Shown here piece by piece: positions 28,675 through 58,112 of a DNA stretch of 58,112 bases. The translations under genes and the position numbers were made by a program. Below the pieces are notes generated by a model. The model was not told where the DNA came from. It did not search any database and worked only from the letters and a program-made list of their open reading frames with translations. Within the stretch, counting starts at the first letter, position 1, and every line of letters starts with the position of its first letter. The stretch comes from Gallionellales bacterium RIFCSPLOWO2_02_FULL_59_110 (GTDB lineage Bacteria > Pseudomonadota > Gammaproteobacteria > Burkholderiales > Gallionellaceae), in contig MGXA01000023.1 of the NCBI GenBank assembly GCA_001801215.1, positions 1-58,112 of the forward strand, given 5' to 3'.

Positions 28675-29190
28675 TCAATGCGGCAACTTTATTTTGAAGA
28701 CATCACCTATCGCTGCAATAATTTCCGGGCTGTCCCATTCGTAGGATCCGCGAACTTTTTCGAGCACCCGGCCATTTGCATCGACCAGAACGGTCAAGGG
28801 AATCGTATCGGCGCCCAGCATGTTTTCCAGGAACAGTTTGCTGTCGAGAAAATTTTCGAACGTAACCCCGGATTTCCTGATGAACGCCGCTGCCGCGCTG
28901 CCATTGTCGTCTGTTGAAATTCCGATCACATTGAATTGTTTTCCACCGTAGCGGCGGGCAAGCCGGTTCAGCGAACCCATTTCAGCGCGGCATGGGCCGC
29001 ACCAACTGGCCCAGACATTGATAATCAGGGGTTTTCCCTTGAAGTCTGAAAATTTTTTCGTGCTCCCGGAAAACCCGCGCAATGTGGCTTCGCGCAGATA
29101 TCCGCCAATCTCGACCTCGCCGGGCGTGCTCGCAAAAGCCGTTGCAGATATTCCCAAGAGGCAGGCAAAAACCAGGAAGATAATTTTCAT
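28675..29190 (-). CDS. TlpA-like exported thioredoxin-fold protein
   Basis: The product is 171 residues. A signal peptide (MKIIFLVFACLLGISATAFA) is followed by a thioredoxin fold with the active site WASWCGPCRAE (about residues 60-70) and the cis-proline in DTIPLTVLVD. In the family such proteins reduce or transfer disulfides in the periplasm, often for cytochrome c maturation. It lies downstream of pycB on the same strand with a 127-bp gap, so co-transcription is unclear. Confidence 0.85.
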   Translation of the reverse strand: MKIIFLVFACLLGISATAFASTPGEVEIGGYLREATLRGFSGSTKKFSDFKGKPLIINVWASWCGPCRAEMGSLNRLARRYGGKQFNVIGISTDDNGSAAAAFIRKSGVTFENFLDSKLFLENMLGADTIPLTVLVDANGRVLEKVRGSYEWDSPEIIAAIGDVFKIKLPH

Positions 29191-29317
29191 TTCGAAATTC
29201 GCCTATTCGTTGCGATGTCCTGCACCGACGGGGTAGGGCATCGGGGCGGAGTCAGGGCACCCGGCCTGCCCATCACGAACGGCCAGGCAGCGCGCCGCGC
29301 CGCTGGCGGGCGCAGAT

Positions 29318-31153
29318 TTATTGGATTTCGACCAAGGTTTCGTCCGGTGCCACGCTGTCGCCTTTCTTGACATGCACGCTGATGACGAAGCCGCCGATAG
29401 GGGCCTGGATTTCGTTTTCCATCTTCATGGCTTCGATCACCAGCACGCCATCACCCGCATCAACCTTGTCTCCGACCTTGACCTTGACATCGACAATGGT
29501 GCCGGGCATGGCGGTTGCCACGCAGCCCTCGTGGGATGGGCGCGGACGCCCCGAGTCTGCTGCCGTTGTGGCGGGTTTTTTCCTGCCGTTGCCCTTGCTG
29601 CTTGAAACTTCGATTTCGTTCAGGGTTTCGACAATGACTTCCTCCGAAATGCCGTCGACGGAAACGTAGAACGGGCGCTGGGCTTCGCCGTGGTGCCCGC
29701 TGCCGGTGAGCTTGATATGGAAGGTTTCGCCGTGCAGCGTTATCTTGAATTCATTGGGCGCATAGCGTTCTGAGGAGGGGGTGGCGGCTTCCTTGGGCAG
29801 CAATGGCTCGGGCTGGAGCGTGTTGGCATTGCGCTCTTGCAGGAAGGTTATGGCGATATCCGGAAACATGGCGTACGTGAGGACATCTTCCTCGCTCTTG
29901 GCCAAGTTTTCGCACTTGATCTTGAGCTTGTTCATCTCGTCTTCAAGCAAATCCGCAGGGCGGCAGGTTATGGTTTCCGCATCGCCGACGGCAAGTTTTT
30001 TGACCTGCCCGTTGATTTCGCCGGGCGCCTTGCCGTAGTGGCCGAGCAGGTAGTTCTTGACTTCATTGGTGACCGATTTGTAGCGCTCGCCGGTTAGCAC
30101 GTTCATCACGGCCTGCGTGCCGACGATTTGCGAGGTTGGCGTTACCAGCGGCGGGTAACCCAGGTCTTCGCGCACGCGCGGGATTTCGGCGAGCACTTCG
30201 TTTATGCGGTTGAGTGCGCCCAGTTCCTTGAGCTGGTTGGACATATTGGAGATCATGCCGCCAGGCACCTGGTTCACCAGCACGCGCGTGTCCACGCCGG
30301 TGTAGGGGCTTTCGAACTGCCAGTATTTCTGGCGCACTTCATAAAAATAGGCGGTGATTTCCTGTAGCGCGGCGAGGTCGATGCCGGTGTCGTAAGGTGT
30401 GCCTTGTAGCGCGGCAACGATGCTCTCGGTCGAGGAATGGCTGGCGCCTTCGCCGAAGGAGGAATTGCAGGTATCCAGGATGGTGGCGCCCGCTTCCACC
30501 CCCTTGAGAAAGCTCATGGCCGACAGGCCGGAGGTGGAGTGGCTGTGCAGGTGGATCGGCAGGCTGACGGCGGCGCGCAGCGCCTTGACCAGTTCGGTGG
30601 TCGCGTAAGGCGTGAGCAGGCCGGCCATGTCCTTGATGCACAGGGTATCGCAGCCCATGGCTTCCAGTTCGCACGCCAGTTCGACGAATTGTGGAATGCC
30701 ATGCACCGGGCTGGTGGTATAGCTGATGCAGCCTTCGGCATGTTTGCCGGCTTTCTTTACCGCTTCGACGGAGACTTGCACGTTGCGCAGGTCGTTCATC
30801 GCGTCGAAGATGCGGAACACGTCGATGCCGTTGCCCGCCGCCTTGGCGACGAAGGCGCGCACTACGTCATCGGGATAGTGGCGGTAGCCGAGCAGGTTCT
30901 GGCCGCGCAGCAGCATCTGGAGACGGCTGTTCGGCAATGCCTTGCGCAGTTTTCTGAGGCGCTCCCACGGGTCTTCTTTCAGGAAGCGCACGCAGGAGTC
31001 GAAGGTCGCGCCTCCCCAGGCTTCCAGCGTCCAGAAGCCGATGCTGTCCAGCTTGGGGCAGATGGGCAGCATGTCGTTGGTGCGCATGCGCGTTGCGATC
31101 ACGGATTGATGGCCATCGCGCAGAACCAGTTCGGAAATAAGGGTTTTTGCCAT
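29318..31153 (-). CDS. pycB: Pyruvate carboxylase subunit B (carboxyltransferase plus biotin carrier), OadA-like
   Basis: The product is 611 residues. The HMGL-like carboxyltransferase barrel begins LRDGHQSVIATRMRT. The metal ligands lie in the HLHSHSTSGLSAM region. The conserved carboxylase domain (about 300-480) and a C-terminal biotinyl domain with the lysine in VIEAMKMENEI (about residue 577) follow. With PycA it forms oxaloacetate from pyruvate. The same two-subunit family includes the 2-oxoglutarate carboxylase (CfiAB) of Hydrogenobacter, so the keto acid must be tested. There is no sodium-pump beta or gamma subunit nearby, which argues against oxaloacetate decarboxylase. It lies 23 bp after pycA. 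Confidence 0.85.
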   Translation of the reverse strand: MAKTLISELVLRDGHQSVIATRMRTNDMLPICPKLDSIGFWTLEAWGGATFDSCVRFLKEDPWERLRKLRKALPNSRLQMLLRGQNLLGYRHYPDDVVRAFVAKAAGNGIDVFRIFDAMNDLRNVQVSVEAVKKAGKHAEGCISYTTSPVHGIPQFVELACELEAMGCDTLCIKDMAGLLTPYATTELVKALRAAVSLPIHLHSHSTSGLSAMSFLKGVEAGATILDTCNSSFGEGASHSSTESIVAALQGTPYDTGIDLAALQEITAYFYEVRQKYWQFESPYTGVDTRVLVNQVPGGMISNMSNQLKELGALNRINEVLAEIPRVREDLGYPPLVTPTSQIVGTQAVMNVLTGERYKSVTNEVKNYLLGHYGKAPGEINGQVKKLAVGDAETITCRPADLLEDEMNKLKIKCENLAKSEEDVLTYAMFPDIAITFLQERNANTLQPEPLLPKEAATPSSERYAPNEFKITLHGETFHIKLTGSGHHGEAQRPFYVSVDGISEEVIVETLNEIEVSSSKGNGRKKPATTAADSGRPRPSHEGCVATAMPGTIVDVKVKVGDKVDAGDGVLVIEAMKMENEIQAPIGGFVISVHVKKGDSVAPDETLVEIQ

Positions 31154-31176
31154 AATATTCTTGCTAGTAGAGTTGA

Positions 31177-32595: not shown

Positions 32596-32693
32596 AAATT
32601 ATCCTGAATCCGGCTAAATGCGGGGTGTTTGGCCGGGCGATAGTTGGGTTGCATGTTTCTGCCCGGCGGGTTTTAACCAGGCCCGAGTCCCGC

Positions 32694-32723
32694 ATTATAG
32701 CGGCATCGTCCCGCCATGCTCAA
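32694..32723 (-). promoter_or_regulatory. Promoter for pycAB on the minus strand
   Basis: Minus-strand TTGAGC (32718-32723), an 18-bp spacer and a consensus TATAAT (32694-32699) give an expected start near 32687. The rest of the 32596-32927 gap shows no gene or clear signal, and the opposite-strand ABC gene has only a weak TATAAG-like box near 32875. Confidence 0.55.
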
Positions 32724-32891: not shown

Positions 32892-33710
<819 letters not shown>

Positions 33711-33729
33711 TACCGCAGCAGCATTGCGC

Positions 33730-35819: not shown

Positions 35820-35970
35820 CCGCTAAGGGCTAAACCGCTATCTCTTGAAGCGGTGATGCGAATTCTTCGAGATTTTCGAAGGAAATCACCGGGTAAGAGT
35901 ATGGGCCCTGAAGCCTTTGTTATAGAATCGCCACAATGGAATCTCATTCATGCCGCTCCAGGGGGGGATT

Positions 35971-36870
35971 ATGTCGCGCAAGCATCCGATCATCGCAGTC
36001 ACAGGTTCATCCGGCGCAGGCACCCCCGCAGTTAGACAGGCATTTGAAAACCTGTTCCGGCGCGAAATAAACATCCGTGCGGCGTTCATCGAGGGCGCCA
36101 GTTTACACAGCCTGGATCGCATGGCGTTCCATGCCGCGGCGACCGAGGCTGCCGGTGCGGGCAACAACACCTTCAGCCATTTTGGCCCGGAAGCCAACCA
36201 CTTCGATAAACTTGAAGAAACATTCAGGAGCTACGCTGAAACCGGCATGTGCAGGCGGCGCTACTACGTGCATAGCGAGGCCGAAGCCGACAGGCACAAC
36301 AGGCACTTCGGCCTGACCGACCTGAAGCCCGGCGTATTCACGCCATGGGAAGACATAGAAGAGAATTCCGACCTGTTGATTTACGAGGGGCTGCATGGCC
36401 TGGTGGTCGACGAGGCCAGCAATATCGACGTTGGGCGCCATGTGGATTTCGGGATTGGCGTCGTGCCGGTCGTCAATCTGGAATGGATTCAGAAAATTCA
36501 CCGCGACAAGGCGGAGCGCGGTTATTCCACCGAGGCGACCGTGGATACCATCCTGCGCCGCATGCCCGAATACATCAAGTACATCACCCCGCAATTTTCG
36601 CGCACCCACATCAATTTTCAGCGCGTGGCGACGGTGGACACCTCGAATCCGTTTGTCTCGCGCGACATTCCGTCCCTGGACGAGAGCTTTGTGATAATCC
36701 GTTTTCGCGATCCGCGCGGGGTGAATTTCCCTTACATGCTGGATATGGTTCCCGGCTCTTTCATGTCGCGCGCCAATACGCTGGTGGCACCCGGCGGAAT
36801 GATGGGCGTTGCGATGGAGGTCATTCTCGCGCCGATCGTGCGCGAGATGATGGAAAACAGGGGCGGTTGA
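35971..36870 (+). CDS. Phosphoribulokinase homologue (PrkB-like) lacking the catalytic Asp
   Basis: The product is 299 residues, clearly of the class I bacterial phosphoribulokinase family: VTGSSGAGT phosphate loop, FGPEANHFDKLEETF, YEGLHGLVV, VVPVVNLEWIQKIHRDKAERGYSTEA, ITPQFSRTHINFQRV, VDTSNPF and PSLDESFVIIRFRDPRG. The segment that in Rhodobacter sphaeroides reads EGDAFHRFNR is EGASLHSLDR here, so the catalytic Asp42 is Ala. The neighbouring His and Arg are kept. The phosphate loop also reads GTPAV instead of GTSTV/GTTTV. Either the enzyme is inactive on ribulose 5-phosphate or it has a new role. ATG 35971 follows a strong GGGGGGG site. It sits 12 bp before rmuC. Confidence 0.85.
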   Translation: MSRKHPIIAVTGSSGAGTPAVRQAFENLFRREINIRAAFIEGASLHSLDRMAFHAAATEAAGAGNNTFSHFGPEANHFDKLEETFRSYAETGMCRRRYYVHSEAEADRHNRHFGLTDLKPGVFTPWEDIEENSDLLIYEGLHGLVVDEASNIDVGRHVDFGIGVVPVVNLEWIQKIHRDKAERGYSTEATVDTILRRMPEYIKYITPQFSRTHINFQRVATVDTSNPFVSRDIPSLDESFVIIRFRDPRGVNFPYMLDMVPGSFMSRANTLVAPGGMMGVAMEVILAPIVREMMENRGG

Positions 36871-36882
36871 TTCTCGAACGAT

Positions 36883-38247
36883 ATGGCGATTGAACTATGG
36901 ATCGGTTTCGGGGTGATCGGGGCGTTGCTGCTGCTCATCGCGCGGAAGCTTTTTACGCTCGGCGGCGCAGCAGGGCAGGGCGACGGCCAGCAGATCGAGC
37001 AGTTGCGCATGGAATTGTCGCGGCTGGATGGAGCGATACGCGCGCAGTTGCAGTCCGGCGACAACCAGCTTTCCGATTTGCGCAAGTCCGTGGCCGGTGC
37101 GCAGCTCGCGGTCAACGAGATGCTGGACAGGAAATTGACCCAGGTTCTGAGTGAATCGCGCATCGATCGCGAGGCGATGGTCAAGGCGCATCGCGATGCG
37201 GGCGATGCGCTGAAGAACGATGTGAACACCCGGCTTACCAGCATGAGCACCGCGCTGACCGAGCAGTTTGCCGCGACCGGAAATCAGCTGCGCGGCACGC
37301 TCAACGAGCGGCTGGGCGAGATTCAGGCGGATACCGCGAAAAAGCTGGAAGAGATGCGCAAGACCGTGGACGAGAAGTTGCACGCCACGCTGGAGCAACG
37401 GCTGGGGGAATCGTTCAAGCAAGTTTCGGATCGGCTGGAACAGGTGCATCGCGGCCTCGGGGAGATGCAGTCGCTGGCGACGGGCGTGGGCGACCTTAAA
37501 CGGGTGCTGACCAATGTCAAGGCGCGCGGCACCTGGGGCGAGGTGCAGCTCGGCTCGCTGATCGAGCAGGTGCTGACGCCCGATCAGTATGCCAGGAACG
37601 TTTCCACCGTGCCGGGCAGCCGCGACCTGGTCGAATTCGCCATCAAGTTGCCGGGCAAGGAAGAAGGCTCGCCTGTATGGTTGCCGGTAGATGCCAAGTT
37701 TCCGGTGGAAGACTACCAGCGCCTGATGGATGCCCAGGACAAGGCGGATACCGAACAGGTGGAACAGGCCGCCAGGGCGCTGGAGGCGCGCATCAAGCAG
37801 GAAGCCAAAACCATCCGCGACAAATACATCTCCCCGCCGCATACCACCGATTTCGGCATCATGTTTTTGCCGACCGAGGGTTTGTACGCCGAAGTGTTGC
37901 GCCGTCCCGGCCTGGCGGATTTTATTCAGCGCGAATATCGCGTCATCGTTTCGGGCCCGACCACCTTTGCCGCAGTATTGAACAGCCTGCAAATGGGTTT
38001 CCGGACCTTGGTCATCGAACAACGCGCCTCCGAAATCTGGGTGTTGCTCGGCGCGGTGAAGACCGAGTTCGGCAAGTTTGGCGACGTGATCGAAGCGACG
38101 CAGAAGAAGCTCGATCAGGCGTCGGAACAATTCGAGAAAGTCGGACAGCGCACCAGGGCGATCAATCGCAGGCTGAAGGGGGTGGAAGCGCTGCCGGTTG
38201 CCGAGGGCGCGGCGCTGGGAGTTTTTGACGGTGAAGATGAAAGTTGA
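36883..38247 (+). CDS. rmuC: DNA recombination protein RmuC
   Basis: The product is 454 residues. The N-terminal membrane helix (FGVIGALLLLIARKLFTL, about 6-23) is followed by a long coiled coil (about 35-210, for example RLDGAIRAQLQSGDNQLSDLR) and the RmuC nuclease-like domain (about 220-420). The latter includes GTWGEVQLGSLIEQVL, VDAKFPVEDYQRL and DFGIMFLPTEGLYAEVL. RmuC limits DNA inversions in E. coli. Its mechanism is not fully known. It probably shares a transcript with the phosphoribulokinase homologue 12 bp upstream. Confidence 0.9.
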   Translation: MAIELWIGFGVIGALLLLIARKLFTLGGAAGQGDGQQIEQLRMELSRLDGAIRAQLQSGDNQLSDLRKSVAGAQLAVNEMLDRKLTQVLSESRIDREAMVKAHRDAGDALKNDVNTRLTSMSTALTEQFAATGNQLRGTLNERLGEIQADTAKKLEEMRKTVDEKLHATLEQRLGESFKQVSDRLEQVHRGLGEMQSLATGVGDLKRVLTNVKARGTWGEVQLGSLIEQVLTPDQYARNVSTVPGSRDLVEFAIKLPGKEEGSPVWLPVDAKFPVEDYQRLMDAQDKADTEQVEQAARALEARIKQEAKTIRDKYISPPHTTDFGIMFLPTEGLYAEVLRRPGLADFIQREYRVIVSGPTTFAAVLNSLQMGFRTLVIEQRASEIWVLLGAVKTEFGKFGDVIEATQKKLDQASEQFEKVGQRTRAINRRLKGVEALPVAEGAALGVFDGEDES

Positions 38248-38752
38248 GCGCCGGGCGGGGCACAGGCAAAGCCCGTGCCGGGTTGCTGGCAGTGGGCGGA
38301 GGTGCCTGGACAAGCCAACTTGCATGTCGATCGCGCGTAAAAAATTTCACAGCGTAAATAGTTGAGATAGAATACGCACTTTCAGGCTTGCTGAATTTGC
38401 CGGGCACCGTTACTCGTGCCCTTGCTTGCCTTTTGAATGATATGAAGATTCCGGTTATGGCATCAGGTTCGCCTGCGGCGAATTTTGGCATTCTCTGAAC
38501 TTGCATTTATCCGGCAGGCCGTAAGAGTTTACGACGCTTTGCCGCGAAACTCTGCGCCCGCTAGGGCTATATCAATCAAGAGGGGTAACGGGGATGGGCG
38601 GTTTCTCCGCCCGGCTCGCAATTCTGCGCAAGCATCATGCGAATTTGCCTCGAAGAGAGACTGTTGCTCTTCGGGTATGAAATATTCGGGCTATGCCCAG
38701 GCTTGATTCCCGGGCGACCGGACACAATTATTAATGACTGAAGGAGTTTTTG
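38248..38752 (+). other. 500-bp leader region of por with hairpins
   Basis: This non-coding stretch holds several hairpins: GGCACAGGC/GCCCGTGCC (38258-38280, probably the rmuC terminator without a T-run), GGGCAC/GTGCCC (about 38402-38420) and CGAAGAG/CTCTTCG (38653-38676). AAGGAG precedes the por ATG by about 7 bp. No open frame of credible composition is seen. I recognise no known riboswitch class. The length is unusual next to the tight spacing elsewhere. Confidence 0.5.
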
Positions 38753-41700
38753 ATGCACCACGCGCAAATGGTTACGATCGACGGGAATGAGGCCGCCGCC
38801 TATATTGCCCATCTGACCAACGAGGTAATCGCGATTTATCCGATTACTCCCTCATCGCCGATGGGTGAGTATTCCGACGCCTGGTCGGCTGCCTGCACAC
38901 CCAACCTGTGGGGCACGGTTCCCGAAGTTATCACCATGCAGAGCGAAGGCGGCGCCGCCGGCACGGTGCACGGCGCATTGCAGACCGGCTCCCTGACGAC
39001 CACCTTTACCGCCTCGCAGGGCTTGCTGCTGATGATCCCCAACATGTACAAAATTGCCGGGGAGCTGACGCCGTTTGTCATGCATGTGGCGGCGCGTTCG
39101 CTCGCAGCCCAGGGTTTGTCGATCTTCGGCGACCATAGCGACGTGATGTCGGCGCGCTCTACCGGTTTTGCCTTCCTCTCTTCCAATTCGGTGCAGGAAG
39201 CCATGGACATGGCGCTGATCGCCCAGGCAGCGACGCTCGAAGCGCGCATACCGATCCTGCATTTCTTTGACGGTTTCCGCACTTCCCACGAAGTGGCCAA
39301 GGTCGAGCAGGTACCGCTGGAAGTTGTGCGCGAGATGATCGACGACAGGCTGGTGTTCGCGCACCGCGCGCGCGCGCTGACGCCGGATCATCCGGTGCTG
39401 CGCGGCACCGCGCAGAACCCGGACGTGTATTTCCAGGCGCGCGAGACGGTCAATCCCTTTTACGATGCGATGCCCGGCATTGTGCAGAAGGCGATGGACA
39501 AATTCGCCAAACTCACCGGACGCCAGTACAAGCTGTATGAATACGTCGGCGCAGCGGATGCTGAACGGGTGATGATTCTGATGGGTTCGGGTGCGGATGC
39601 TGCCGAGGAAACCGTAGAGCACCTGACCGCACACGGCGAAAAGGTTGGCATCGTGAAGGTGCGCCTGTACCGCCCCTTTGTTGCCGACGAACTGCTCAAG
39701 GCCATCCCGGCCACGGCCAAGCGCATCGCGGTTCTCGATCGCACCAAGGAACCCGGTGCGGACGGCGAGCCGCTGTACAAGGACGTGGTGACGGCGTTCG
39801 CCGAGTCCTTTACCTCCGGCGCGAACAAGCTTGCCGCCATGCCGCGTGTGGTAGGCGGGCGCTACGGCCTGTCCTCCAAGGAATTCACGCCGGGCATGAT
39901 CAAGGGCGTATTCGACGAGCTGAAAAAAGACCAGCCGAAAAACCATTTCACCGTCGGTATCATCGACGATGTCACCCATACCAGCCTGAAGTGGGATGCG
40001 GACTTCCGCAACGATGCCAGCAGCGGCGTGAACCGTTGCCTGTTCTATGGCCTCGGCTCGGACGGCACGGTGGGCGCCAACAAGAACACCATCAAGATCA
40101 TGGGCGAGGAAACCGAGCTGTATGCTCAGGGTTATTTCGTTTATGACTCGAAAAAAGCCGGCGCGGGAACCGTCTCGCACCTGCGCTTCTCGCCCAAACC
40201 GATCCACTCACCCTATCTGATCGGCAATAACGAGGCGAATTTCATCGGCTGCCACCAGCCGGTATTCCTGGAGCGCTACGAGATGCTGGATCATGCCGCC
40301 GAGGGCGCGGTGTTTCTGCTCAACACGACGACGGCGCCGGACAAGGTGTGGAATCTGCTGACGCGCAAGATGCAGCAGCAGATCATCGACAAGAAAATCG
40401 AATTTTACGCGATCGACGCCTATGCCATCGCCAAGGCGACCGGCATGGGCAGCCGCATCAACACCATCATGCAGACCTGTTTCTTTGCCATTTCCGGCGT
40501 GTTGCCGCGCGAGCTGGCAATCGAGAAGATCAAGTCCGCCGCCGAAAAATCCTACAGCAAGAAGGGCAGGGATGTGGTGGAAGCCAACTGGAGAGCGATC
40601 GACGAAACCCTCGCCAACCTGCATAAGGTAAAAATTCCCGCCGCCGCCACCAGCACGTTCGAAATGCCCGAACCGGTGGGCGCCAATGCGCCGGATTTCG
40701 TCAAGCGCGTCACCGCCGAAATCATGGCCGGACGCGGCGACCGCCTGCCGGTCAGCGCGCTGCCTCCGGATGGCACCTGGCCTACCGGCACCGCAGTCTG
40801 GGACAAGCGCAACCTGGCACTGGAAATCCCGGTATGGGATGAAGAGCTGTGCATCTACTGCGGCAAGTGCCCTCTGGTCTGTCCGCATACCGCCATCCGT
40901 TCCAAGGTTTTCCCTGCGGATTTGGCCAAGAATGCGCCGCCCACCTTCAAGCATATCCAGATCAAGGGCAAGGAATTCGAGCAGGGCATGCACGTCACTT
41001 ACCAGGTGGCGCCCGAGGACTGCACCGGCTGCACGCTGTGCGTCGATATCTGCCCGGCGGTATCCAAGACCGACCCGAACTACAAGGCGCTCAACATGCG
41101 CGATATCGTGCCGTTGCGCGAACAGGAAAAGGAGAACTTCGAGTTCTTCCTCAAACTTCCGGAATTCGACCGCACCAAGTTGCGCACTTCCACCATCAAG
41201 GGCGCAATGATGTTGCAGCCGCTGTTCGAGTTTTCTTCCGCCTGCGTCGGCTGCGGCGAAACGCCCTATATCAAGCTGGCGACCCAGTTGTTCGGCGACC
41301 GCATGGTGGTGGCCAATGCCACCGGCTGTTCATCGATCTACGGCGGCAACCTGCCCACTACGCCTTACAGCAAGAACGCCGAAGGGCGCGGCCCGGCCTG
41401 GTCAAATTCGCTGTTCGAGGACAATGCCGAATTCGGCTTGGGTTTCCGCGTCAGTATCGACAAACAAGCCGAGCATGCGCGCGAATTGCTGGCGCAATTG
41501 AAGGATAAGGTTGGCGCAGAACTGGTCGAATCACTCCTCAACGCCGATCAGTCCACCGAGGTGGGCATCTTTGCCCAGCGCGAGCGCATCGAAGCATTGC
41601 GCTCGAAACTGGCCGGCATCGATTCCGCAGTGGCGCGCAATCTGGAAAGCCTGGCAGACTATCTGGCGAAGAAGAGCGTATGGATCATCGGCGGCGACGG

Positions 41701-42352
41701 ATGGGCCTACGACATCGGTTTCGGCGGGCTGGATCACGTGCTGGCCTCGGGGCGCAACGTCAACATCCTGGTGCTCGATACCGAAGTCTATTCCAACACC
41801 GGCGGGCAGTGCTCCAAGGCCACCCCGCGTGGCGCAACGGCCAAATTTGCCGCCGGCGGCAAGCCTACCGGCAAGAAGGACCTGGGGCAGATCGCCATGA
41901 GCTACGGCAATGTTTACGTCGCCCATGTCGCCTATGGCGCGAAGGATATCCATACGCTGAAGACTTTCATCGAGGCAGAATCCTTCGATGGCCCGTCGCT
42001 GATCATTGCCTATAGCCCCTGCGTCGAGCACGGCTACGAAATGGGCAAGCAGCACCAGCAGCAGGAACTGGCGGTCAACACCGGTCACTGGCCGCTGTAC
42101 CGTTACGATCCGCGCCGCGAGGAGGAAGGCAAGAATCCGCTGTCGCTGGATTCGCAGAAACCTTCCGTGTCTTACCGCGAGTTCGTGCAGAACGAGCCGC
42201 GCTTCCGCGGCCTGGTGAAGAGCATGGACAGCGACAGCGGAAAAACAGTGGCGTTTTTCGATAAGGAATTGCAGAAACACTATGCGATTTTTGAACATAT
42301 GGCGGCCGATTCCCGCAAGGATGCAGGAACGGACGCCAAGAAAACCGACTGA
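38753..42352 (+). CDS. nifJ: Pyruvate:ferredoxin (flavodoxin) oxidoreductase, single-chain type
   Basis: The product is 1199 residues, matching single-chain POR/NifJ. Domains in order are: an N-terminal TPP-pyrimidine domain (IAHLTNEVIAIYPITPSSPMGE), a POR gamma-like domain (about 430-620), two 4Fe-4S clusters (CIYCGKCPLVCP about 703-714 and CTGCTLCVDICP about 760-771), and the C-terminal TPP-binding beta domain with CVGCGETPY, GDGWAYDIGFGGLDHVLASG and the proximal cluster Cys. It interconverts pyruvate with acetyl-CoA, CO2 and reduced ferredoxin. In an autotroph it can carboxylate acetyl-CoA. It sits directly upstream of ppdK, which takes pyruvate to PEP. Confidence 0.93.
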   Translation: MHHAQMVTIDGNEAAAYIAHLTNEVIAIYPITPSSPMGEYSDAWSAACTPNLWGTVPEVITMQSEGGAAGTVHGALQTGSLTTTFTASQGLLLMIPNMYKIAGELTPFVMHVAARSLAAQGLSIFGDHSDVMSARSTGFAFLSSNSVQEAMDMALIAQAATLEARIPILHFFDGFRTSHEVAKVEQVPLEVVREMIDDRLVFAHRARALTPDHPVLRGTAQNPDVYFQARETVNPFYDAMPGIVQKAMDKFAKLTGRQYKLYEYVGAADAERVMILMGSGADAAEETVEHLTAHGEKVGIVKVRLYRPFVADELLKAIPATAKRIAVLDRTKEPGADGEPLYKDVVTAFAESFTSGANKLAAMPRVVGGRYGLSSKEFTPGMIKGVFDELKKDQPKNHFTVGIIDDVTHTSLKWDADFRNDASSGVNRCLFYGLGSDGTVGANKNTIKIMGEETELYAQGYFVYDSKKAGAGTVSHLRFSPKPIHSPYLIGNNEANFIGCHQPVFLERYEMLDHAAEGAVFLLNTTTAPDKVWNLLTRKMQQQIIDKKIEFYAIDAYAIAKATGMGSRINTIMQTCFFAISGVLPRELAIEKIKSAAEKSYSKKGRDVVEANWRAIDETLANLHKVKIPAAATSTFEMPEPVGANAPDFVKRVTAEIMAGRGDRLPVSALPPDGTWPTGTAVWDKRNLALEIPVWDEELCIYCGKCPLVCPHTAIRSKVFPADLAKNAPPTFKHIQIKGKEFEQGMHVTYQVAPEDCTGCTLCVDICPAVSKTDPNYKALNMRDIVPLREQEKENFEFFLKLPEFDRTKLRTSTIKGAMMLQPLFEFSSACVGCGETPYIKLATQLFGDRMVVANATGCSSIYGGNLPTTPYSKNAEGRGPAWSNSLFEDNAEFGLGFRVSIDKQAEHARELLAQLKDKVGAELVESLLNADQSTEVGIFAQRERIEALRSKLAGIDSAVARNLESLADYLAKKSVWIIGGDGWAYDIGFGGLDHVLASGRNVNILVLDTEVYSNTGGQCSKATPRGATAKFAAGGKPTGKKDLGQIAMSYGNVYVAHVAYGAKDIHTLKTFIEAESFDGPSLIIAYSPCVEHGYEMGKQHQQQELAVNTGHWPLYRYDPRREEEGKNPLSLDSQKPSVSYREFVQNEPRFRGLVKSMDSDSGKTVAFFDKELQKHYAIFEHMAADSRKDAGTDAKKTD

Positions 42353-52967: not shown

Positions 52968-53711
52968 ATGACGAGCGCGATGGCAAAGACAGGGAAAAAT
53001 CTGTCGGTTTCACAGGCTGATGAGAAGGGCAGCGTAGCAAAGCAGCGCCTGATTACGGTCTCTATCATGGGCAAACCCTACGAGGTTCCGGAAGATGCGA
53101 CCATCATGGGCGCCATCGAATTTGCCGGGCACCAGATCATCCGTGGCGCCGGTTGCCGCGAGGGTTATTGCGGCGCTTGCGCCACCATCTACCGCCTGCC
53201 CGGAGACTACAAAATCCACACCGGCCTGGCCTGCATGACTATGGTCGAAGAGGGCATGACACTGACACAGGTGCCTTATGTTCCGGCCGAGAAGGCCATC
53301 TACGACATCGAAAAACTCAAGCCCAACGTGACCGCCATCCAGCAGATGTACCCGACGGTTTTCCGCTGCGTCGCGTGTAACACCTGCACCAAGTCCTGCC
53401 CGCAGGGACTCCAGGTGATGGACTACATCCAGGCCGCCAAGCGCGGCGACATCGCGACGGTGATGGATCTGTCTTTCGATTGCGTGGTGTGCGGGCTGTG
53501 CATGTTGCGTTGCCCCGCCGAAATCACGCAGCCCCTGGTGGGCATCCTGGCGAAGCGCCTGTACGGCCGCTACCTGCGCAAGGACAGCCCGGAGCTGGCG
53601 GAACGCGTCAAGGCCGTGGAAGACGGCGCCTACAACGCGGAATACGCGGAACTGATGTCGATGAGCCGCAAGGAATTGTCGGATCGCTACTACGCCCGCG
53701 ACTCGGAATAA
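52968..53711 (+). CDS. Fumarate reductase/succinate dehydrogenase-type iron-sulfur subunit
   Basis: The product is 247 residues. The N-terminal 2Fe-2S domain has GAGCREGYCGACATIYRLPG and the fourth Cys in TGLACMTM. The C-terminal region has two 4Fe-4S motifs, CVACNTCTKSCPQGL (about residues 136-150) and CVVCGLCMLRCPAE (about 172-185), instead of the 3Fe-4S plus 4Fe-4S of ordinary SdhB. It passes electrons between the flavoprotein and the HdrC/HdrB subunits encoded downstream, as in the soluble or Hdr-linked fumarate reductases. There is no membrane anchor gene (sdhC/sdhD) in the cluster. Confidence 0.85.
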   Translation: MTSAMAKTGKNLSVSQADEKGSVAKQRLITVSIMGKPYEVPEDATIMGAIEFAGHQIIRGAGCREGYCGACATIYRLPGDYKIHTGLACMTMVEEGMTLTQVPYVPAEKAIYDIEKLKPNVTAIQQMYPTVFRCVACNTCTKSCPQGLQVMDYIQAAKRGDIATVMDLSFDCVVCGLCMLRCPAEITQPLVGILAKRLYGRYLRKDSPELAERVKAVEDGAYNAEYAELMSMSRKELSDRYYARDSE

Positions 53712-53741
53712 CCGGCACACGGAATAAGAGAGGATTTCAAG

Positions 53742-55457
53742 ATGTATCCAGATTACATGGAAGAATCGTTGCGCAAGGTAGTTCAGACACGACCGAAGCG
53801 TTTGGAGCTGGCCAGGAAGCCCGACCCGGTCTACCCGCCGATGAATGCGGAAGAACGCCGCGCTGTCCTGGAAGGCTTTCACCCCGATTTTGAAGCCAGC
53901 GCCAGACGCAAGGTGCGCGTCGGCCCGAACCGGGACGAGTCGCTGACCACCGAAGTTGCCGATTTGCTGGAATCGCATTCCTGGCTGCGCAGCAATCAGG
54001 TGGATCTTAAAAAACCGGATTTCGAGACCGATCTGTTGATCATCGGCGGCGGCGGCGCGGGTTGCAACGCGGCGCTGGTCGCGATGAAGGAACATGGCCT
54101 GCGCTCGATTATCGCCACCAAGCTGCGCATGGGCGATGCCAATACGATGATGTCGCAGGGCGGCATGCAGGCCGCCGTGTCGCGCACCGATTCGCCGACG
54201 CGCCACTATCTCGACGCCATCGGCGGCGGGCACTTCGAAAACAAGCCGGAGCTGGTCAGGGCGCTCACCGAGGACGGCCCGGGCGTGGTCAAGTGGCTCG
54301 AAGACCTGGGCGTGGTGTGGGACAAGGAAAAAGACGGTTCGATGAAGACCATGCACGGTGGCGGCACTTCGAGGAAGCGTATGCTTTCCTGCCGCGATTA
54401 CACCGGTGCGATGATCATGCGCACCCTGATGGACGAGGTGCGCAACCATCCCGACATGATCGACGTGAAGGAATTCATGCCGGCCGTGGAATTGATCATG
54501 GACGACAAGGGGTGTTGCGCAGGCGCGGTTCTGTATAGCTTGGACAGCGAGGAATTCTTCACCGTCAAGGCGAAGTCCACCATCGTCGCCACCGGCGGCT
54601 ACGGCCGCCTGCACATCCGCGGTTACGACACCACCAACCACTACGGTGCCACCGGCGACGGGCTGGTGATGGCCTACCGCGCTGGCGCGAAGCTGATGTA
54701 CATGGACTCCGTCCAGTACCACCCGACGGGCGTTTCGTTCCCCGAACAGATCGCCGGCTTCCTGGTCACCGAGGCGATCCGCGGCGCGGGCGGTCAGCCG
54801 CTGAACAAGGACGGCGAACTGTTCGTCTTCCCGCGCGAGCCGCGCGACATCGAGGCTTCGGCCATCATCCGCGAGTGCGTGCAGAACGGCGGCGGTGTCA
54901 CGACACCCTCCGGGCGCGTCGGCGTGTGGCTGGATTCGCCGCTCATCGATATGCTGCACGGCGAGGGCTACACCGACAGGCACTTTCCGGCCATGTACCG
55001 CCAGTTTATTCAATACGGTATCGACATTACCAAGCTGCCGATGCTGATCTACCCGTCGCTGCACTACCAGAACGGCGGCATCGAAATCAACGAGCGTTGC
55101 GAGACCGATCTGCCAGGCCTGTATGTGGCGGGCGAGGCGAGCGGCGGCCTGCATGGCCGCAACCGCCTGATGGGCAACTCGGTGCTCGACTACAACGTGT
55201 TCGGCAGGCGCGCAGGAAAATATGCCGGCGAATACGCCAAGAAGGTCAAGCTCGGCAAGCTCAGCCTGGCGCACCTCGAAGCCTACGAGAAGGAATTGAA
55301 GGATGCCGGCGTGAAAACCGACCTGGTGACCCCGGTGCTGTTGCCGTCTTATGCGCCGGAGGATGTCAGGAAGCGCCAGTTGCTGCGCGCCGACAACGAG
55401 TTGCCCGGCACGTCGGTGCTGCACAACCGGCTACACGACGAAAGGCCCGGCGCTTAA
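53742..55457 (+). CDS. Fumarate reductase/succinate dehydrogenase-type flavoprotein subunit
   Basis: The product is 571 residues. The FAD-binding motif lies in LLIIGGGGAGCNAALVAMKE (about 87-106). The HPTG active-site motif is YHPTGVSFPEQ (about 327-337). EPRDIEASAII supplies the catalytic Arg. LHYQNGGIEIN and VAGEASGGLHGRNRLMGNS complete the site. At the place of the FAD-linking His (SHT in E. coli FrdA) it has ANT, so FAD is predicted to be non-covalent. In E. coli FrdA, replacing that His kept fumarate reduction but lost succinate oxidation. About 85 N-terminal residues precede the Rossmann fold, longer than in typical SdhA. It reduces fumarate to succinate, or the reverse. Confidence 0.85.
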   Translation: MYPDYMEESLRKVVQTRPKRLELARKPDPVYPPMNAEERRAVLEGFHPDFEASARRKVRVGPNRDESLTTEVADLLESHSWLRSNQVDLKKPDFETDLLIIGGGGAGCNAALVAMKEHGLRSIIATKLRMGDANTMMSQGGMQAAVSRTDSPTRHYLDAIGGGHFENKPELVRALTEDGPGVVKWLEDLGVVWDKEKDGSMKTMHGGGTSRKRMLSCRDYTGAMIMRTLMDEVRNHPDMIDVKEFMPAVELIMDDKGCCAGAVLYSLDSEEFFTVKAKSTIVATGGYGRLHIRGYDTTNHYGATGDGLVMAYRAGAKLMYMDSVQYHPTGVSFPEQIAGFLVTEAIRGAGGQPLNKDGELFVFPREPRDIEASAIIRECVQNGGGVTTPSGRVGVWLDSPLIDMLHGEGYTDRHFPAMYRQFIQYGIDITKLPMLIYPSLHYQNGGIEINERCETDLPGLYVAGEASGGLHGRNRLMGNSVLDYNVFGRRAGKYAGEYAKKVKLGKLSLAHLEAYEKELKDAGVKTDLVTPVLLPSYAPEDVRKRQLLRADNELPGTSVLHNRLHDERPGA

Positions 55458-55475
55458 AGCACCGGAGTCAGGCCG

Positions 55476-56009
55476 ATGACGCATATTGACGACAAGATAA
55501 TCGAGCTGGCGCGCACCGCGCTCAGCTTCGAGTATGGCGAGGAGCACTTCCACCGCCATGCCGCAGAGATGACCAAGAATTCGGGCGGCAAGGCCATGTT
55601 CCTGCGGCTTGCGGAAGAGGAGTCGGACCGCATCGAGGACATGCACAAGCTGTTTGGCGCCGTGATGGGGCAGGAAGCATGGCAGCAGCTTGCTGCCGAA
55701 GAAGCGGCGAACGCGCACCCGTCGAAAGTGATCGCCGAAATGGAAGCCGCCGTCACCCTGCGCGGGCATGCGGCGCTCGTCGACGATGCCCAGGCAGTGC
55801 GCATGGCGATGGAGCTTCAACGCCGCATCATCCATATCTTCAAGGGCATGTCGGAACATGTCAGCGATCCGGATATCGTCAAGCTGGCCGACAAGATGAT
55901 CCAGGAGGAATGCTCGCGATATGATTTCTTGCAGGCGCAACTGGATAGCTTGCAGAACGTCGGGTTATGGCTGGACACCCCGGAGTTTCGTATGGATGGA
56001 AGGTTCTGA
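55476..56009 (+). CDS. Ferritin-like (rubrerythrin-related) four-helix protein
   Basis: The product is 177 residues, predicted all-helical in two pairs: FEYGEEHFHRHAAEMTKNS with AMFLRLAEEESDRIEDMHKLF, and VRMAMELQRRIIHIF with DIVKLADKMIQEECSRYDFL. The E...EExxH pattern of rubrerythrin is only partly kept: the His positions read Arg and Tyr, so di-iron binding is uncertain. There is no rubredoxin domain. It is inserted between the flavoprotein and hdrC with 18 bp and 11 bp gaps, so it is probably part of, or protects, the oxygen-sensitive complex. Function unknown. Confidence 0.6.
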   Translation: MTHIDDKIIELARTALSFEYGEEHFHRHAAEMTKNSGGKAMFLRLAEEESDRIEDMHKLFGAVMGQEAWQQLAAEEAANAHPSKVIAEMEAAVTLRGHAALVDDAQAVRMAMELQRRIIHIFKGMSEHVSDPDIVKLADKMIQEECSRYDFLQAQLDSLQNVGLWLDTPEFRMDGRF

Positions 56010-56020
56010 ACGGGCACGCT

Positions 56021-56440
56021 ATGGATACTACCCTACGCATTACCTCGGCCCATGCCGGCAGTTCTTTTACGGCGCGGATCGAAAAGATCAGCGGCCAGAA
56101 GCTGCTGGCCTGCTACCAGTGCGGCAAATGCTCCGCCGGCTGCCCGATGGCGGCACACATGGACGTGCTGCCCAACCGGATGATCCGCATGGCGCAACTG
56201 GGGATGCAGCAGCAACTGCTGGAGACCAAGGCCATCTGGATGTGCGTGTCCTGTCTGACCTGCAACTCGCGTTGCCCGAAGGGTATCAAAATTGCCGAGG
56301 TCATCGAAGCGCTGCGTAAGGCGGCGTTGGGCGGCGGCGAACGCAACGACAACCTCAAGATCATGGAGCTGACACCGGAGGCGCGCAGCGTATTACCGCC
56401 CATTGCCACGATCAGCGCCATGCGTAAATTGACCTCATGA
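56021..56440 (+). CDS. hdrC: Heterodisulfide reductase subunit C-like protein
   Basis: The product is 139 residues. Two 4Fe-4S motifs are present: CYQCGKCSAGCPMA (about residues 32-45) and CVSCLTCNSRCPKGI (about 75-89). This is the HdrC layout. In Hdr it links the HdrA flavin or partner to the HdrB non-cubane cluster. ATG 56021 fits the family start better than the longer frame to 55967, which overlaps the ferritin-like gene. It is directly followed by hdrB. No hdrA is present in the window, so the electron source would be the fumarate reductase side or ferredoxin. Confidence 0.85.
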   Translation: MDTTLRITSAHAGSSFTARIEKISGQKLLACYQCGKCSAGCPMAAHMDVLPNRMIRMAQLGMQQQLLETKAIWMCVSCLTCNSRCPKGIKIAEVIEALRKAALGGGERNDNLKIMELTPEARSVLPPIATISAMRKLTS

Positions 56441-56444
56441 TGGA

Positions 56445-57371
56445 ATGCCCCTGATGGGAAATGAAAATAAACCGATGAAGCTCGCCTATTATCCCGGCTG
56501 TACGCTGAAGAACCAGGCCACCAACTTCGATGTGTCCACCGTTTCGTCGATGGCGAAACTGGACGTGGAAGTCGAGGAACTGGATCGCTGGAACTGTTGC
56601 GGCACGGTACATGCGCTGGATTCAGACAACGTCATGAACCGCGTCGCGCCGATCACCAACATGATCCGCGTCAAGGAAATGCAGGCCAAAACGGAAGGCA
56701 TGGCCGGCGAGTTCATGACCTCCTGCGCGATGTGCTACAACACGCTCAAGCGCGCCAACATCGACGTGCAGCAGCGCGCCGATGCGCTGGAAACCATCAA
56801 CGAACTGCTGTACCTCGAAAAAACCAAGTACCAGGGCGATGTCGAGGTTCTGCATCTGCTCGAATACCTGCGCGATCGCGTCGGTTTCGACAATCTGGCG
56901 AAGAAGGTGACCAGACCGCTCAAAGGGCTGCGCGTGGCCTGCTATTACGGCTGCCTGCTGATGCGCCCGAAAGAGGTTGCTTTCGACGATGCCGAGAACC
57001 CGACGATTATGGAAAACCTGATTCGCGCTCTCGGCGCCACACCCGTGGAGTTTTCGCACAAGATGGAGTGCTGCGGCGCTTACCAGACGGTCGATAAGCC
57101 GGATGTCATCGCCGACCGCACCGACCGGATCATGGGTTCGGCGAGCGAGGAGCGGGCCGACCTGGTGGTGGTGAGTTGCCCGCTGTGCGCCTTCAACCTG
57201 GACTACCGGCAGGACGACGCCAAGCGCCTCAACCCGGACTTTAACAACATGCCGGTGCTGTACTTCACGCAGTTGATGGCGCTGGCGTTCGGCTGCGACG
57301 AAGCGGCGCTGCGTTTCGACCTTCAGCATATCGATCCGCTGCCGGTCTTGAAGGCGCGCGGGCTGGATTAG
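56445..57371 (+). CDS. hdrB: Heterodisulfide reductase subunit B-like protein
   Basis: The product is about 299-308 residues. Two CCG domains bind non-cubane 4Fe-4S clusters. The first is YYPGCTLKNQA with NCCGTVHALD and SCAMCYN. The second is CYYGCLLMRP with ECCGAYQ and SCPLCAFNL. The Cys set is complete in both. Possible starts are ATG 56445, 56454 or 56475 (MKLAYYPGC, the usual family start). Upstream ribosome sites are weak, so it is probably coupled to hdrC. In methanogens HdrB reduces a heterodisulfide. Here a thiol/disulfide or electron-relay role for fumarate reduction is inferred. Confidence 0.88.
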   Translation: MPLMGNENKPMKLAYYPGCTLKNQATNFDVSTVSSMAKLDVEVEELDRWNCCGTVHALDSDNVMNRVAPITNMIRVKEMQAKTEGMAGEFMTSCAMCYNTLKRANIDVQQRADALETINELLYLEKTKYQGDVEVLHLLEYLRDRVGFDNLAKKVTRPLKGLRVACYYGCLLMRPKEVAFDDAENPTIMENLIRALGATPVEFSHKMECCGAYQTVDKPDVIADRTDRIMGSASEERADLVVVSCPLCAFNLDYRQDDAKRLNPDFNNMPVLYFTQLMALAFGCDEAALRFDLQHIDPLPVLKARGLD

Positions 57372-57381
57372 GGAGGAAAGC

Positions 57382-57645
57382 ATGTTTTTCAACGACCTCA
57401 AGCCGACACGCGGCGAAGTTTTCATCAACGCCACCTGGTGCAAGGGCTGCGCTTTCTGCGTGCAATTCTGCCCGACCAACGTGCTGGAAATGTCCAAGGA
57501 ATTTAACGCCAAGGGTTACCACCCGCCTTATGCGAAGAACCCGGAAGCCTGTACCGATTGCAAATTTTGTCAACTGATCTGTCCGGAGTTTTCCATCTTC
57601 GTGAACAGGGTAGAAGGCAACAACATAGGAGAAACGGAAAAGTGA
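57382..57645 (+). CDS. korD: 2-oxoglutarate:ferredoxin oxidoreductase delta-type ferredoxin subunit
   Basis: The product is 87 residues. Two 4Fe-4S clusters are present: CKGCAFCVQFCPTNVL (residues 20-35) and CTDCKFCQLICPEFSI (about 58-73), with the KorD/OorD-type NAKGYHPPYA linker. It starts 10 bp after hdrB with GGAGG. Its TGA overlaps the GTG of korA (GTGA), showing it is the Kor subunit rather than a free ferredoxin. Confidence 0.85.
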   Translation: MFFNDLKPTRGEVFINATWCKGCAFCVQFCPTNVLEMSKEFNAKGYHPPYAKNPEACTDCKFCQLICPEFSIFVNRVEGNNIGETEK

Positions 57646-58112
57646 AAACGAAGCCAAGCGAAGTTTCAGAGCAGGCTAATGTTCGCGCCAGCGAACGTTA
57701 TGCCGGAACTAAGACTGTCGCAGCAGACCCCAAAGGAGTCGATTCCGGCCCGCATTTCATGGATGGCGACCACGCGCTGGCCGAAGGCGCGCTGGCGGCA
57801 GGCTGCCGGTTTTTTGCCGGCTATCCCATCACCCCATCGACCGAAACCGCCGAGCGTTTCGCCGAACGCGCGCCGGAAGTGGGCGCGCTGTTCATCCAGA
57901 TGGAAGACGAGCTCGCCTCCATCGCAGCCAATATCGGCGCGGCATGGGCGGGGCAAAAGGTGATGACCGTGACCTGCGGCCCCGGCTTTTCCCTGATGAC
58001 GGAAAACCTCGGCTTGGCCTGCATGACCGAAACCCCGATGGTGATCGCCAACGTGCAGCGCGGCGGACCGTCCACCGGCCTGCCGACGCTGACCGCGCAG
58101 CAGGACATGATG
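57642..58112 (+). CDS. korA: 2-oxoacid:ferredoxin oxidoreductase alpha subunit, N-terminal part (cut by window end)
   Basis: The visible 157 residues begin with a GTG start in a GTGA overlap with korD. After about 40 unconserved residues come HALAEGALAAGCRFFAGYPITPSTE and continue to MEDELASIAANIGAAWAGQK, then TVTCGPGFSLMTENLGLACM and QRGGPSTGLPTLTAQQD. These are the standard KorA/PorA family motifs. The YPITPSTE form and the korD neighbour suggest 2-oxoglutarate, but specificity cannot be proved from this part. ATG 57759 is a possible later start. The beta subunit is expected right of the window. Confidence 0.85.
   Translation, partial: MKTKPSEVSEQANVRASERYAGTKTVAADPKGVDSGPHFMDGDHALAEGALAAGCRFFAGYPITPSTETAERFAERAPEVGALFIQMEDELASIAANIGAAWAGQKVMTVTCGPGFSLMTENLGLACMTETPMVIANVQRGGPSTGLPTLTAQQDMM

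What the first reader, a model, noticed from the sequence alone, without database searches (positions are those of the whole stretch)
28675..58112. Reductive-TCA-type gene block in a betaproteobacterium
Within 30 kb lie two-subunit pyruvate carboxylase, pyruvate:ferredoxin oxidoreductase, pyruvate phosphate dikinase, the Rnf complex with ApbE, an Hdr-linked fumarate reductase and a Kor-type 2-oxoacid:ferredoxin oxidoreductase. These are the ferredoxin-dependent carboxylations and the fumarate step of a reductive TCA cycle. Rnf can supply reduced ferredoxin from NADH and the ion gradient. No ATP-citrate lyase is visible, so a reversed oxidative TCA (citrate synthase running backwards) is a possible alternative. 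Betaproteobacteria are usually credited with the Calvin cycle, so this would be unusual. The set could also serve assimilation or an oxidative cycle.
Basis: partly seen in the sequence, partly recalled or inferred. Interest (0 to 1): 0.85.

Follow-up and report, generated by a model that had tools for sequence, protein, structure and literature searches.

The report
Second CO2-fixation cycle in iron bacteria
This relative of freshwater iron-oxidising bacteria, a group credited with fixing CO2 by the Calvin cycle, also carries an intact-looking gene cluster for the reverse citric acid cycle, including the citrate-splitting enzyme, so it may have two ways of making biomass from CO2.

Summary
The window is a whole contig (C23) that breaks inside korA and continues on contig C75 through a 78-nt exact overlap. 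Joined order: PycBA, PRK, PFOR, PPDK, ApbE-Rnf, FrdBA-Rbr-HdrCB-KorDABC-HdrA-Flx-like genes-AclB-AclA-aconitase. The same genome has RuBisCO, two PRKs, citrate synthase and 2-oxoglutarate dehydrogenase, so the reverse TCA set sits beside the Calvin and oxidative TCA cycles. AclA is in 20 of 76 genomes of this Gallionella/Sideroxydans-type genus and co-occurs with PFOR (17 of 20 versus 7 of 56) and KOR (18 of 20 versus 3 of 56). The layout matches the tubeworm-symbiont/Thioflavicoccus cluster (PMC6315080). My searches found no such report for Gallionellaceae; one Ferrovales-like betaproteobacterial MAG is precedent (PMC6094481). Unexpected: a 105-190 residue Lys/Ala-rich KorB tail in 12 of 12 such KorB genes of the genus. 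Direction and activity are inferred.

The parts
29318..31153 (-). pycB, pyruvate carboxylase subunit B
   Evidence: NF006761, 896.9 bits, cut-off 402; also passes the oxaloacetate decarboxylase alpha model TIGR01108
31177..32595 (-). pycA, biotin carboxylase subunit
   Evidence: NF005525, 908.7 bits, cut-off 768; model named acetyl-CoA carboxylase biotin carboxylase; pairing with pycB is by position
35950..36870 (+). phosphoribulokinase (Calvin cycle), near PFOR
   Evidence: NF011997, 445.3 bits, cut-off 362; second copy at C49:7729-8613
38750..42352 (+). PFOR, one-chain pyruvate:ferredoxin (flavodoxin) oxidoreductase
   Evidence: TIGR02176, 1777.4 bits
42404..45253 (+). PPDK, pyruvate phosphate dikinase
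   Evidence: TIGR01828, 1312.1 bits
45692..46690 (+). ApbE-like flavin transferase
   Evidence: PF02424
46687..47196 (+). RseC/MucC-like protein
   Evidence: PF04246
47212..52264 (+). rnfA, rnfB, rnfC, rnfD, rnfG, rnfE
   Evidence: six Pfam-supported ORFs in order
52968..53711 (+). frdB-like, 2Fe-2S plus two 4Fe-4S motifs
   Evidence: TfrB model far below its cut-off
53742..55457 (+). frdA-like flavoprotein
   Evidence: best model TfrA, 343.8 bits, cut-off 718 not met
55476..56009 (+). rubrerythrin-like protein
   Evidence: PF02915, 21.6 bits, cut-off 22.8 not met; place as rbr in PMC6315080 Fig. 2 legend
55967..56440 (+). hdrC-like
   Evidence: TIGR03290, 84.3 bits, cut-off 160 not met
56445..57371 (+). 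hdrB-like, two CCG domains
   Evidence: PF02754, two stretches; TIGR03288, 171.1 bits, cut-off 345 not met
57382..57645 (+). korD, 87-aa dicluster ferredoxin subunit
   Evidence: two CxxCxxCxxxC motifs, same place in L045, L097, L098 and in G075, G228; no NCBIfam match
57642..58112 (+). korA, first part; continues on C75 (L009:1-840)
   Evidence: GTG start overlapping korD stop; PF01855 on both pieces; 78-nt contig overlap

Best explanation
The window and the next contig encode a reductive (reverse) TCA module of the tubeworm-symbiont/Thioflavicoccus type, in a Gallionella/Sideroxydans-type betaproteobacterium that also has RuBisCO, PRK and an ordinary oxidative TCA cycle. How it most likely works: type II ATP-citrate lyase AclBA splits citrate with ATP and CoA into acetyl-CoA and oxaloacetate (domains, fold and invariant residues shown; activity inferred). 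PFOR carboxylates acetyl-CoA to pyruvate; PycAB and PPDK give oxaloacetate and PEP (genes shown; direction inferred). Oxaloacetate goes by malate to fumarate, which the FrdBA-HdrCB unit reduces (inferred). HdrA with the MvhD/FlxD-like and NAD-binding/iron-sulphur Flx-like subunits takes electrons from NADH and bifurcates them: some go up through HdrCB to FrdBA and fumarate, some down to ferredoxin/KorD, so that KorDABC can carboxylate succinyl-CoA to 2-oxoglutarate (gene order shown; bifurcation inferred from known Flx-Hdr systems). Rnf makes more low-potential ferredoxin from NADH and the ion gradient (inferred). IDH and aconitase close the cycle to citrate. The likely use is cheaper CO2 fixation at very low or no oxygen, with the Calvin cycle at higher oxygen (inferred).
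Against: No activity, expression or labelling data. The genome has citrate synthase and 2-oxoglutarate dehydrogenase, so an oxidative cycle is also possible. FrdA, FrdB, HdrA, HdrB and HdrC models are below their curated cut-offs. The lyase domain of AclA is very remote by sequence (E 0.0066 and 0.48). MDH, succinyl-CoA synthetase and IDH were not searched for in the own genome. AclAB homologues also occur without rTCA neighbours in heterotrophs. Co-occurrence counts are not corrected for kinship. Three of 20 acl+ genomes lack PFOR and two lack KOR in these searches, and G070 has both KORs but no AclA match.
Confidence: 0.7

Rival explanations
1. Partial use: the Calvin cycle makes the biomass and this set runs only as assimilatory branches (KOR and FRD for 2-oxoglutarate, PFOR for pyruvate, ACL for acetyl-CoA), without net cycling.
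For: RuBisCO is in 67 of 76 genus genomes and 16 of 20 acl+ ones; PRK in all acl+ genomes but G095; KOR or PFOR without AclA in some genomes.
Against: ATP-citrate lyase in one cluster with KOR, FRD, aconitase and IDH makes a full cycle, and the lyase costs ATP that a branch to 2-oxoglutarate would not need.
Confidence: 0.2
2. Oxidative or catabolic use: ACL splits imported citrate, and KOR, PFOR and Frd run oxidatively, with Rnf taking ferredoxin electrons.
For: AclAB homologues without rTCA neighbours (57 loci) include some beside TctA tricarboxylate transporters (8 of 57 loci hold the TctA-type family; four checked by Pfam).
Against: No such transporter was noticed in the block, though none was searched for genome-wide. 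The AclA tree sets the Gallionellaceae-type rows with L097 and L098, which have kor-hdr neighbours, apart from those loci. An ordinary oxidative route is present already.
Confidence: 0.07
3. Reversed oxidative TCA: citrate synthase runs backwards, and this set supplies the rest.
For: Citrate synthase is present.
Against: ATP-citrate lyase is encoded in the same cluster.
Confidence: 0.02
4. Artefact: misassembly or foreign contigs in the bin.
For: The genome has 112 contigs and the cluster crosses a contig break; C23-C75 adjacency rests on a 78-nt overlap and on relatives.
Against: Same order in four genus genomes, G075 and G228; on a 339-kb contig of G075 PRK, PFOR and the cluster lie within 47 kb; third-position GC of cluster genes is like that of neighbours.
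Confidence: 0.01

Closest known systems
rTCA cluster of Thioflavicoccus mobilis, the Escarpia laminata symbiont and an aquifer gammaproteobacterial MAG (Rubin-Blum et al. 2019, PMC6315080; two of three parts of the text read)
   Same: Type II aclAB, korABCD, tfrAB-like fumarate reductase, rubrerythrin, flxABCD-hdrABC genes interspersed, acn and idh beside acl, Rnf, and RuBisCO in the same genome.
   Different: Host is a Gallionella/Sideroxydans-type betaproteobacterium; KorB has a long Lys/Ala-rich tail (not compared with T. mobilis, whose sequence I could not fetch); PRK stands near PFOR; a second KorAB-FrdBA-NuoF-like module is present. pntAB was not looked for.
Candidatus Endoriftia persephone (PMC9796809, passages)
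   Same: aclAB, korDABC near other rTCA genes, additional dimeric KorAB, form II RuBisCO.
   Different: Marine symbiotic gammaproteobacterium.
Ferrovales-like boreal-lake MAG bin 139a (PMC6094481, passages)
   Same: Betaproteobacterium said to hold all genes of the CBB and rTCA pathways.
   Different: No gene arrangement or ACL type in the passages seen; the same paper credits its Gallionellaceae-related bin 129 with the CBB cycle.
Type II ATP-citrate lyase of tubeworm symbionts (PMC3522073, passages)
   Same: Divergent ACL type beside RuBisCO form II.
   Different: Sequences not compared here.
Soluble NADH-dependent fumarate reductase of Hydrogenobacter (recalled, no call)
   Same: Fumarate reductase tied to soluble redox partners; the C81 module FrdBA-NuoF-like resembles it in kind.
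   Different: Subunits were not compared.

Membership tests
T. mobilis/tubeworm-type rTCA cluster | aclAB, korABCD, tfrAB-like and flx/hdr genes interspersed in one cluster | tested here: met
   C23+C75 order
T. mobilis/tubeworm-type rTCA cluster | acn, idh and mdh accompany acl | tested here: inconclusive
   acn starts on C75 and is cut by the contig end; idh follows in G005, G008, G075, G228, mdh in L082; not searched for in the own genome
T. mobilis/tubeworm-type rTCA cluster | RuBisCO in the same genome | tested here: met
   NF010002, 901.9 bits, cut-off 489
T. mobilis/tubeworm-type rTCA cluster | Sequence kinship of AclA with T. mobilis and symbiont AclA | not tested
   Those sequences were not obtained (one search failed)
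ATP-citrate lyase | Citrate-binding/ATP-grasp subunit | tested here: met
   AclB: PF16114 57.9 bits (cut-off 26.8), PF08442 48.7 bits (cut-off 29.5)
ATP-citrate lyase | CoA-binding subunit with phosphohistidine | tested here: met
   PF02629 and PF13607 over cut-off; H273 in GHAGA invariant in 31 rows; role by analogy, recalled
ATP-citrate lyase | Citryl-CoA lyase domain on the same chain | tested here: met
   By predicted fold of the 90% identical L079 protein; by sequence only E 0.0066 and 0.48; PF00285 does not see it
ATP-citrate lyase | ATP-dependent citrate cleavage | not testable with these tools
   Needs enzyme assay
CoM/CoB fumarate reductase TfrAB | Curated model cut-offs | tested here: not met
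   TfrA 343.8 of 718, TfrB 36.1 of 385 bits; so 'Tfr-like', not Tfr
Electron-bifurcating Flx-Hdr | HdrA, HdrB with two CCG domains, HdrC, MvhD/FlxD-like and NAD-binding subunits in one cluster | tested here: met
   by domains; HdrA, HdrB and HdrC curated cut-offs are not reached
Electron-bifurcating Flx-Hdr | NADH-driven bifurcation | not testable with these tools
   Needs purified complex
Reversed oxidative TCA cycle | No ATP-citrate lyase; citrate synthase cleaves citrate | tested here: not met
   aclBA encoded
2-oxoglutarate:ferredoxin oxidoreductase (four-subunit) | alpha, beta, gamma and ferredoxin-type delta subunits | tested here: met
   NCBIfam KorB and KorC equivalog cut-offs not reached, so substrate is inferred from context

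The most novel reading that the evidence does not exclude
In Gallionellaceae the rTCA carboxylase is built differently: KorB has gained a 105-190 residue Lys/Ala-rich, histone-H1-like tail ending in or near KTRK. The tail gathers acidic ferredoxin and the Frd-Hdr-Flx-Kor proteins into one electron-channelling assembly, or anchors them to nucleoid or polyphosphate, letting an oxygen-sensitive cycle run in a microaerophile that also keeps the Calvin cycle. Some strains in which no RuBisCO was found (G013, G084) might rely on the rTCA cycle alone.
Probability: 0.15. Interest if true: 0.88.

Novelty: new variant of a known kind. Interest (0 to 1): 0.72.

Why it matters
Gallionellaceae are prominent freshwater and groundwater iron oxidisers, and their CO2 fixation is taken to be the Calvin cycle. 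The 2023 pangenome paper (PMC10734462, passages) looked in 103 genomes for RuBisCO genes; the terms 'TCA cycle', 'Calvin' and 'citrate lyase' do not occur in its main text. If about a quarter of one such genus (20 of 76) carries a second cycle, then carbon-isotope budgets, RuBisCO-based surveys and energy models of iron-fed ecosystems need revision. It is testable: 'Candidatus Ferrigenium altingense' AG, the primary member of a nitrate-reducing Fe(II)-oxidising enrichment culture, carries aclBA and aconitase (L089, accession JAHRYS). The contig has the same length as G020:C7, which also holds PFOR and the second KOR-FRD module.

Tried and rejected
Reversed oxidative TCA: set aside because AclBA is encoded. 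'KOR and FRD replace a missing 2-oxoglutarate dehydrogenase': rejected, sucA and sucB are present next to gltA.

'acl+ strains have lost the Calvin cycle': not upheld. Four of 20 acl+ genomes show no RuBisCO (G013, G016, G031, G084), but PRK is present in all four, so assembly gaps are possible; 5 of 56 acl- genomes also show none.

A direct comparison with T. mobilis or Endoriftia sequences was not made (one search failed). Tandem repeats in the KorB-tail DNA: none found. PF00285 (citrate synthase) does not see the AclA lyase domain. The third-position GC printed for sucA used wrong coordinates and is ignored.

Rows dropped or counted with care. L099 has a stop in frame and was left out of alignment A2 and the tree. 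KorB matches in G036, G088 and G089 (34-36%, E about 1e-26) were not counted as KOR. G005's RuBisCO is a 74-residue fragment, counted as present. AclA in G018 (246 residues) and G097 is incomplete and in G082 lies in two reading frames; all three are counted as present. One search stopped with an error after AclA-G016, so AclA-G013, PFOR and PPDK dN/dS were not computed and not rerun; KorB core for G013 covers 170 codons only.

Papers: from the 11 I saw passages of six; PMC9239080, PMC11641172, PMC5078718, PMC12322008 and PMC7005843 were not opened.
Full report
WHAT IS THERE. The window is the whole of contig C23 of a 2.81-Mb genome in 112 contigs (99.72% complete, 0.65% contaminated). The named genes are real: PycBA, PFOR and PPDK pass curated NCBIfam cut-offs; ApbE, RseC and RnfABCDGE match Pfam. 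FrdB, FrdA, a rubrerythrin-like protein, HdrC, HdrB, KorD and KorA lie head to tail with gaps of -43 to 30 nt. KorD (57382-57645) had been overlooked. An amino-acid-type transporter and an RmuC-like gene (by eye) also lie there, so the interval is not one pure pathway block.

THE REST OF THE GENOME. It has one RuBisCO large subunit (NF010002, 901.9 bits, cut-off 489). The model's 459-aa length and the following genes, which read by eye as CbbQ and CbbO, suggest form II; those two genes had no NCBIfam match at 1e-30. There are two PRKs, citrate synthase beside 2-oxoglutarate dehydrogenase E1 and E2, and class I fumarase. A second module on C81 has KorAB (alpha over the TIGR03710 cut-off, beta over TIGR02177), FrdBA and a NuoF-like protein; its FrdA is 44% identical to the first. 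MDH, succinyl-CoA synthetase and IDH were not searched for in this genome. IDH follows aconitase in G005, G008, G075 and G228, and L082 has MDH after IDH.

WHO. AclA at 81-90% identity hits contigs titled Gallionella, Sideroxydans, Gallionellaceae, Gallionellales, 'Candidatus Ferrigenium altingense', Nitrosomonadales, Betaproteobacteria and, twice, Gammaproteobacteria (the best 80 of 216 related stretches are shown).

DISTRIBUTION. AclA (E <= 1e-30) is in 20 of 76 genomes of the genus, 12 of 44 of high quality. PFOR (E <= 1e-60) is in 24 of 76: 17 of 20 acl+ and 7 of 56 acl-. KOR of either type is in 18 of 20 acl+ (the two misses, G018 and G031, are 79% and 66% complete) and 3 of 56 acl- (G064, G070, G099). 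Fisher p is 7e-9 and 2e-12, but the genomes are kin, so these overstate the evidence. RuBisCO is in 67 of 76 genomes and 16 of 20 acl+ ones. PRK is in 20 of 21 genomes asked, the 20 acl+ and G098; the miss is G095. In 399 genomes drawn from the order AclA (E <= 1e-100) is in 3: the own, G228 (another genus of the family, 88%) and G428 (another family, 85%). FrdA of this type (89% or more) is in 6 of 61 relatives searched, all in the genus; in the one genome taken from each of 24 other families the longer matches shown are at most 38% identical. Outside that sample G228 has it at 90%.

ARRANGEMENTS. Type A is FrdBA-Rbr-HdrCB-KorDABC-HdrA-Flx-AclBA, in G000, G005, G007, G013, G016, G075 and G228, with aconitase next or within a few kb in all of these but G007, where none was seen in the stretch fetched. 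Another arrangement is AclBA-Acn-IDH-KorAB2-FrdBA2-NuoF in G008, with the same pieces, IDH and NuoF not checked, in G017. On one 339-kb contig of G075 PycBA, PRK, PFOR, PPDK, the type A cluster and the KorAB2-FrdBA2-NuoF module lie within 47 kb; Rnf was not seen in the stretch fetched. PRK stands next to PFOR in G075, G083, G017, G008 and G016, one gene away in G000, and beside a PFOR fragment in G082.

ANCESTRY. In the AclA tree of 80 rows (79 of the 80 loci plus the own) the 22 Gallionellaceae-type rows, own included, form one group (SH-aLRT 100), sister to L097 (titled Thiotrichales) and L098 (titled Alphaproteobacteria), which have the same frd/hdr/kor or hdr/kor/flx surroundings. The other 57 loci, many from heterotrophic genera, show no rTCA-cluster neighbours of these kinds in the DNA held, apart from a 32% aconitase match in L154. 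A TctA-type tricarboxylate transporter family occurs in 8 of these 57 loci (four checked by Pfam), which fits citrate as the substrate of the family. They also include Nitrospirae and Sedimenticola rows whose use of AclA is open. One MAG (G094) has a second, distant AclA that groups with Rhodoferax.

MECHANISM. HdrA, an MvhD/FlxD-like protein, a NAD-binding flavoprotein, HdrC and an HdrB with two CCG stretches are the parts of a Flx-Hdr complex. HdrCB genes follow FrdBA, and hdrA follows korC. I infer that NADH electrons are split between fumarate (high potential) and ferredoxin/KorD (low potential), feeding the carboxylation. The same was proposed for the E. laminata symbiont (PMC6315080). 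Not shown: any activity, and that FrdBA reduces fumarate; TfrA, TfrB, HdrA, HdrB and HdrC models are all below their cut-offs. dN/dS against up to five relatives is 0.037-0.118 for FrdA, HdrB, KorB core, HdrA, AclB and AclA, so the genes are under purifying selection.

THE KORB TAIL. KorB has 445 residues; KorB of L097 and L098 has 311 and 310. The extra part is Lys/Ala/Pro-rich. It is in 12 of 12 KorB genes of this type in the genus: 105-190 residues from the YGKT motif, 32-50 Lys+Arg, 8-12 Asp+Glu, KTRK at the end (11) or one residue before it (1). It is in all 14 Gallionellaceae-type rows, some the same genomes; one of them, L093, ends differently. Of 517 ORFs picked in fetched Gallionellaceae-type loci, 14 pass a K/A-rich filter and all are KorB; L095, whose tail one search shows, was not among them. 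Median pairwise identity is 93% in the core and 65% in the tail (66 pairs). Tail dN/dS is 0.05-0.17, but dS is near saturation and the alignment gapped, so I lean little on it. Function unknown; best guess electrostatic gathering of acidic partners. One literature search listed three papers, none on such a tail judging by the listing.

LITERATURE. 'Gallionellaceae' with 'ATP citrate lyase': 0 papers. 'Gallionellaceae' with 'rTCA': 11; passages of six (PMC7242380, PMC11366258, PMC12501874, PMC8114936, PMC6094481, PMC9516098) do not credit Gallionellaceae with rTCA; the other five were not opened. Further searches. Passages of PMC6137239, PMC6792436, PMC12622760, PMC11784278 and PMC12607638 gave no rTCA claim for the family. 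PMC6094481 reports one Ferrovales-like betaproteobacterial MAG with all CBB and rTCA genes. Only open-licence PMC papers were searchable, so a report elsewhere is possible.

VERDICT. A real, intact-looking rTCA cluster of a known kind in an unexpected and ecologically important family, with its own variations (KorB tail, PRK-PFOR linkage, alternative KOR-FRD-NuoF module). The reading of direction and use is inference.

Noticed in passing
L009:837-2174 (C75); loci L163-L174: KorB carries a 105-190 residue Lys/Ala-rich, histone-H1-like tail in 12 of 12 such genes of the genus; KorB of L097 and L098 lacks it.
   Followed up: partly
L010:9139-15269 (C81): Second KorAB-FrdBA-NuoF-like module in the same genome; FrdA 44% identical to the window's. 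Similar FrdA in G008, G016, G017, G020, G026.
   Followed up: partly
L099, L102-L105, L107-L158: AclAB homologues (AclA 58-64%) in many heterotrophic genera without rTCA neighbours; 8 of 57 loci hold a TctA-type tricarboxylate transporter family: a possible ATP-driven citrate catabolism.
   Followed up: partly
window 35950-42352: A Calvin-cycle PRK close to PFOR; adjacent also in G008, G016, G017, G075, G083 and beside a PFOR fragment in G082.
   Followed up: partly
window 3540-10862: Phage-type integrase (9379-10719) beside tRNA-Met (10786-10862), with int-alpA RNA (7224-7290), a DUF927 protein and a transposase-domain ORF: looks like an integrated element at the tRNA.
   Followed up: no
window 20-93: Rfam match to a group II intron end at the edge of the contig.
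   Followed up: no
G082:C35:14756-17408: AclA lies in two adjacent reading frames in this genome; sequencing error or broken gene not decided.
   Followed up: no
G013, G016, G031, G084: acl+ genomes with no RuBisCO match although PRK is present; G013 is 99% and G084 97% complete.
   Followed up: partly
G070: Both KOR types but no AclA match in a 95% complete genome.
   Followed up: no
window 22947-24152: HpcH/HpaI (CitE-like) aldolase-family ORF, modest match of 36.6 bits.
   Followed up: no
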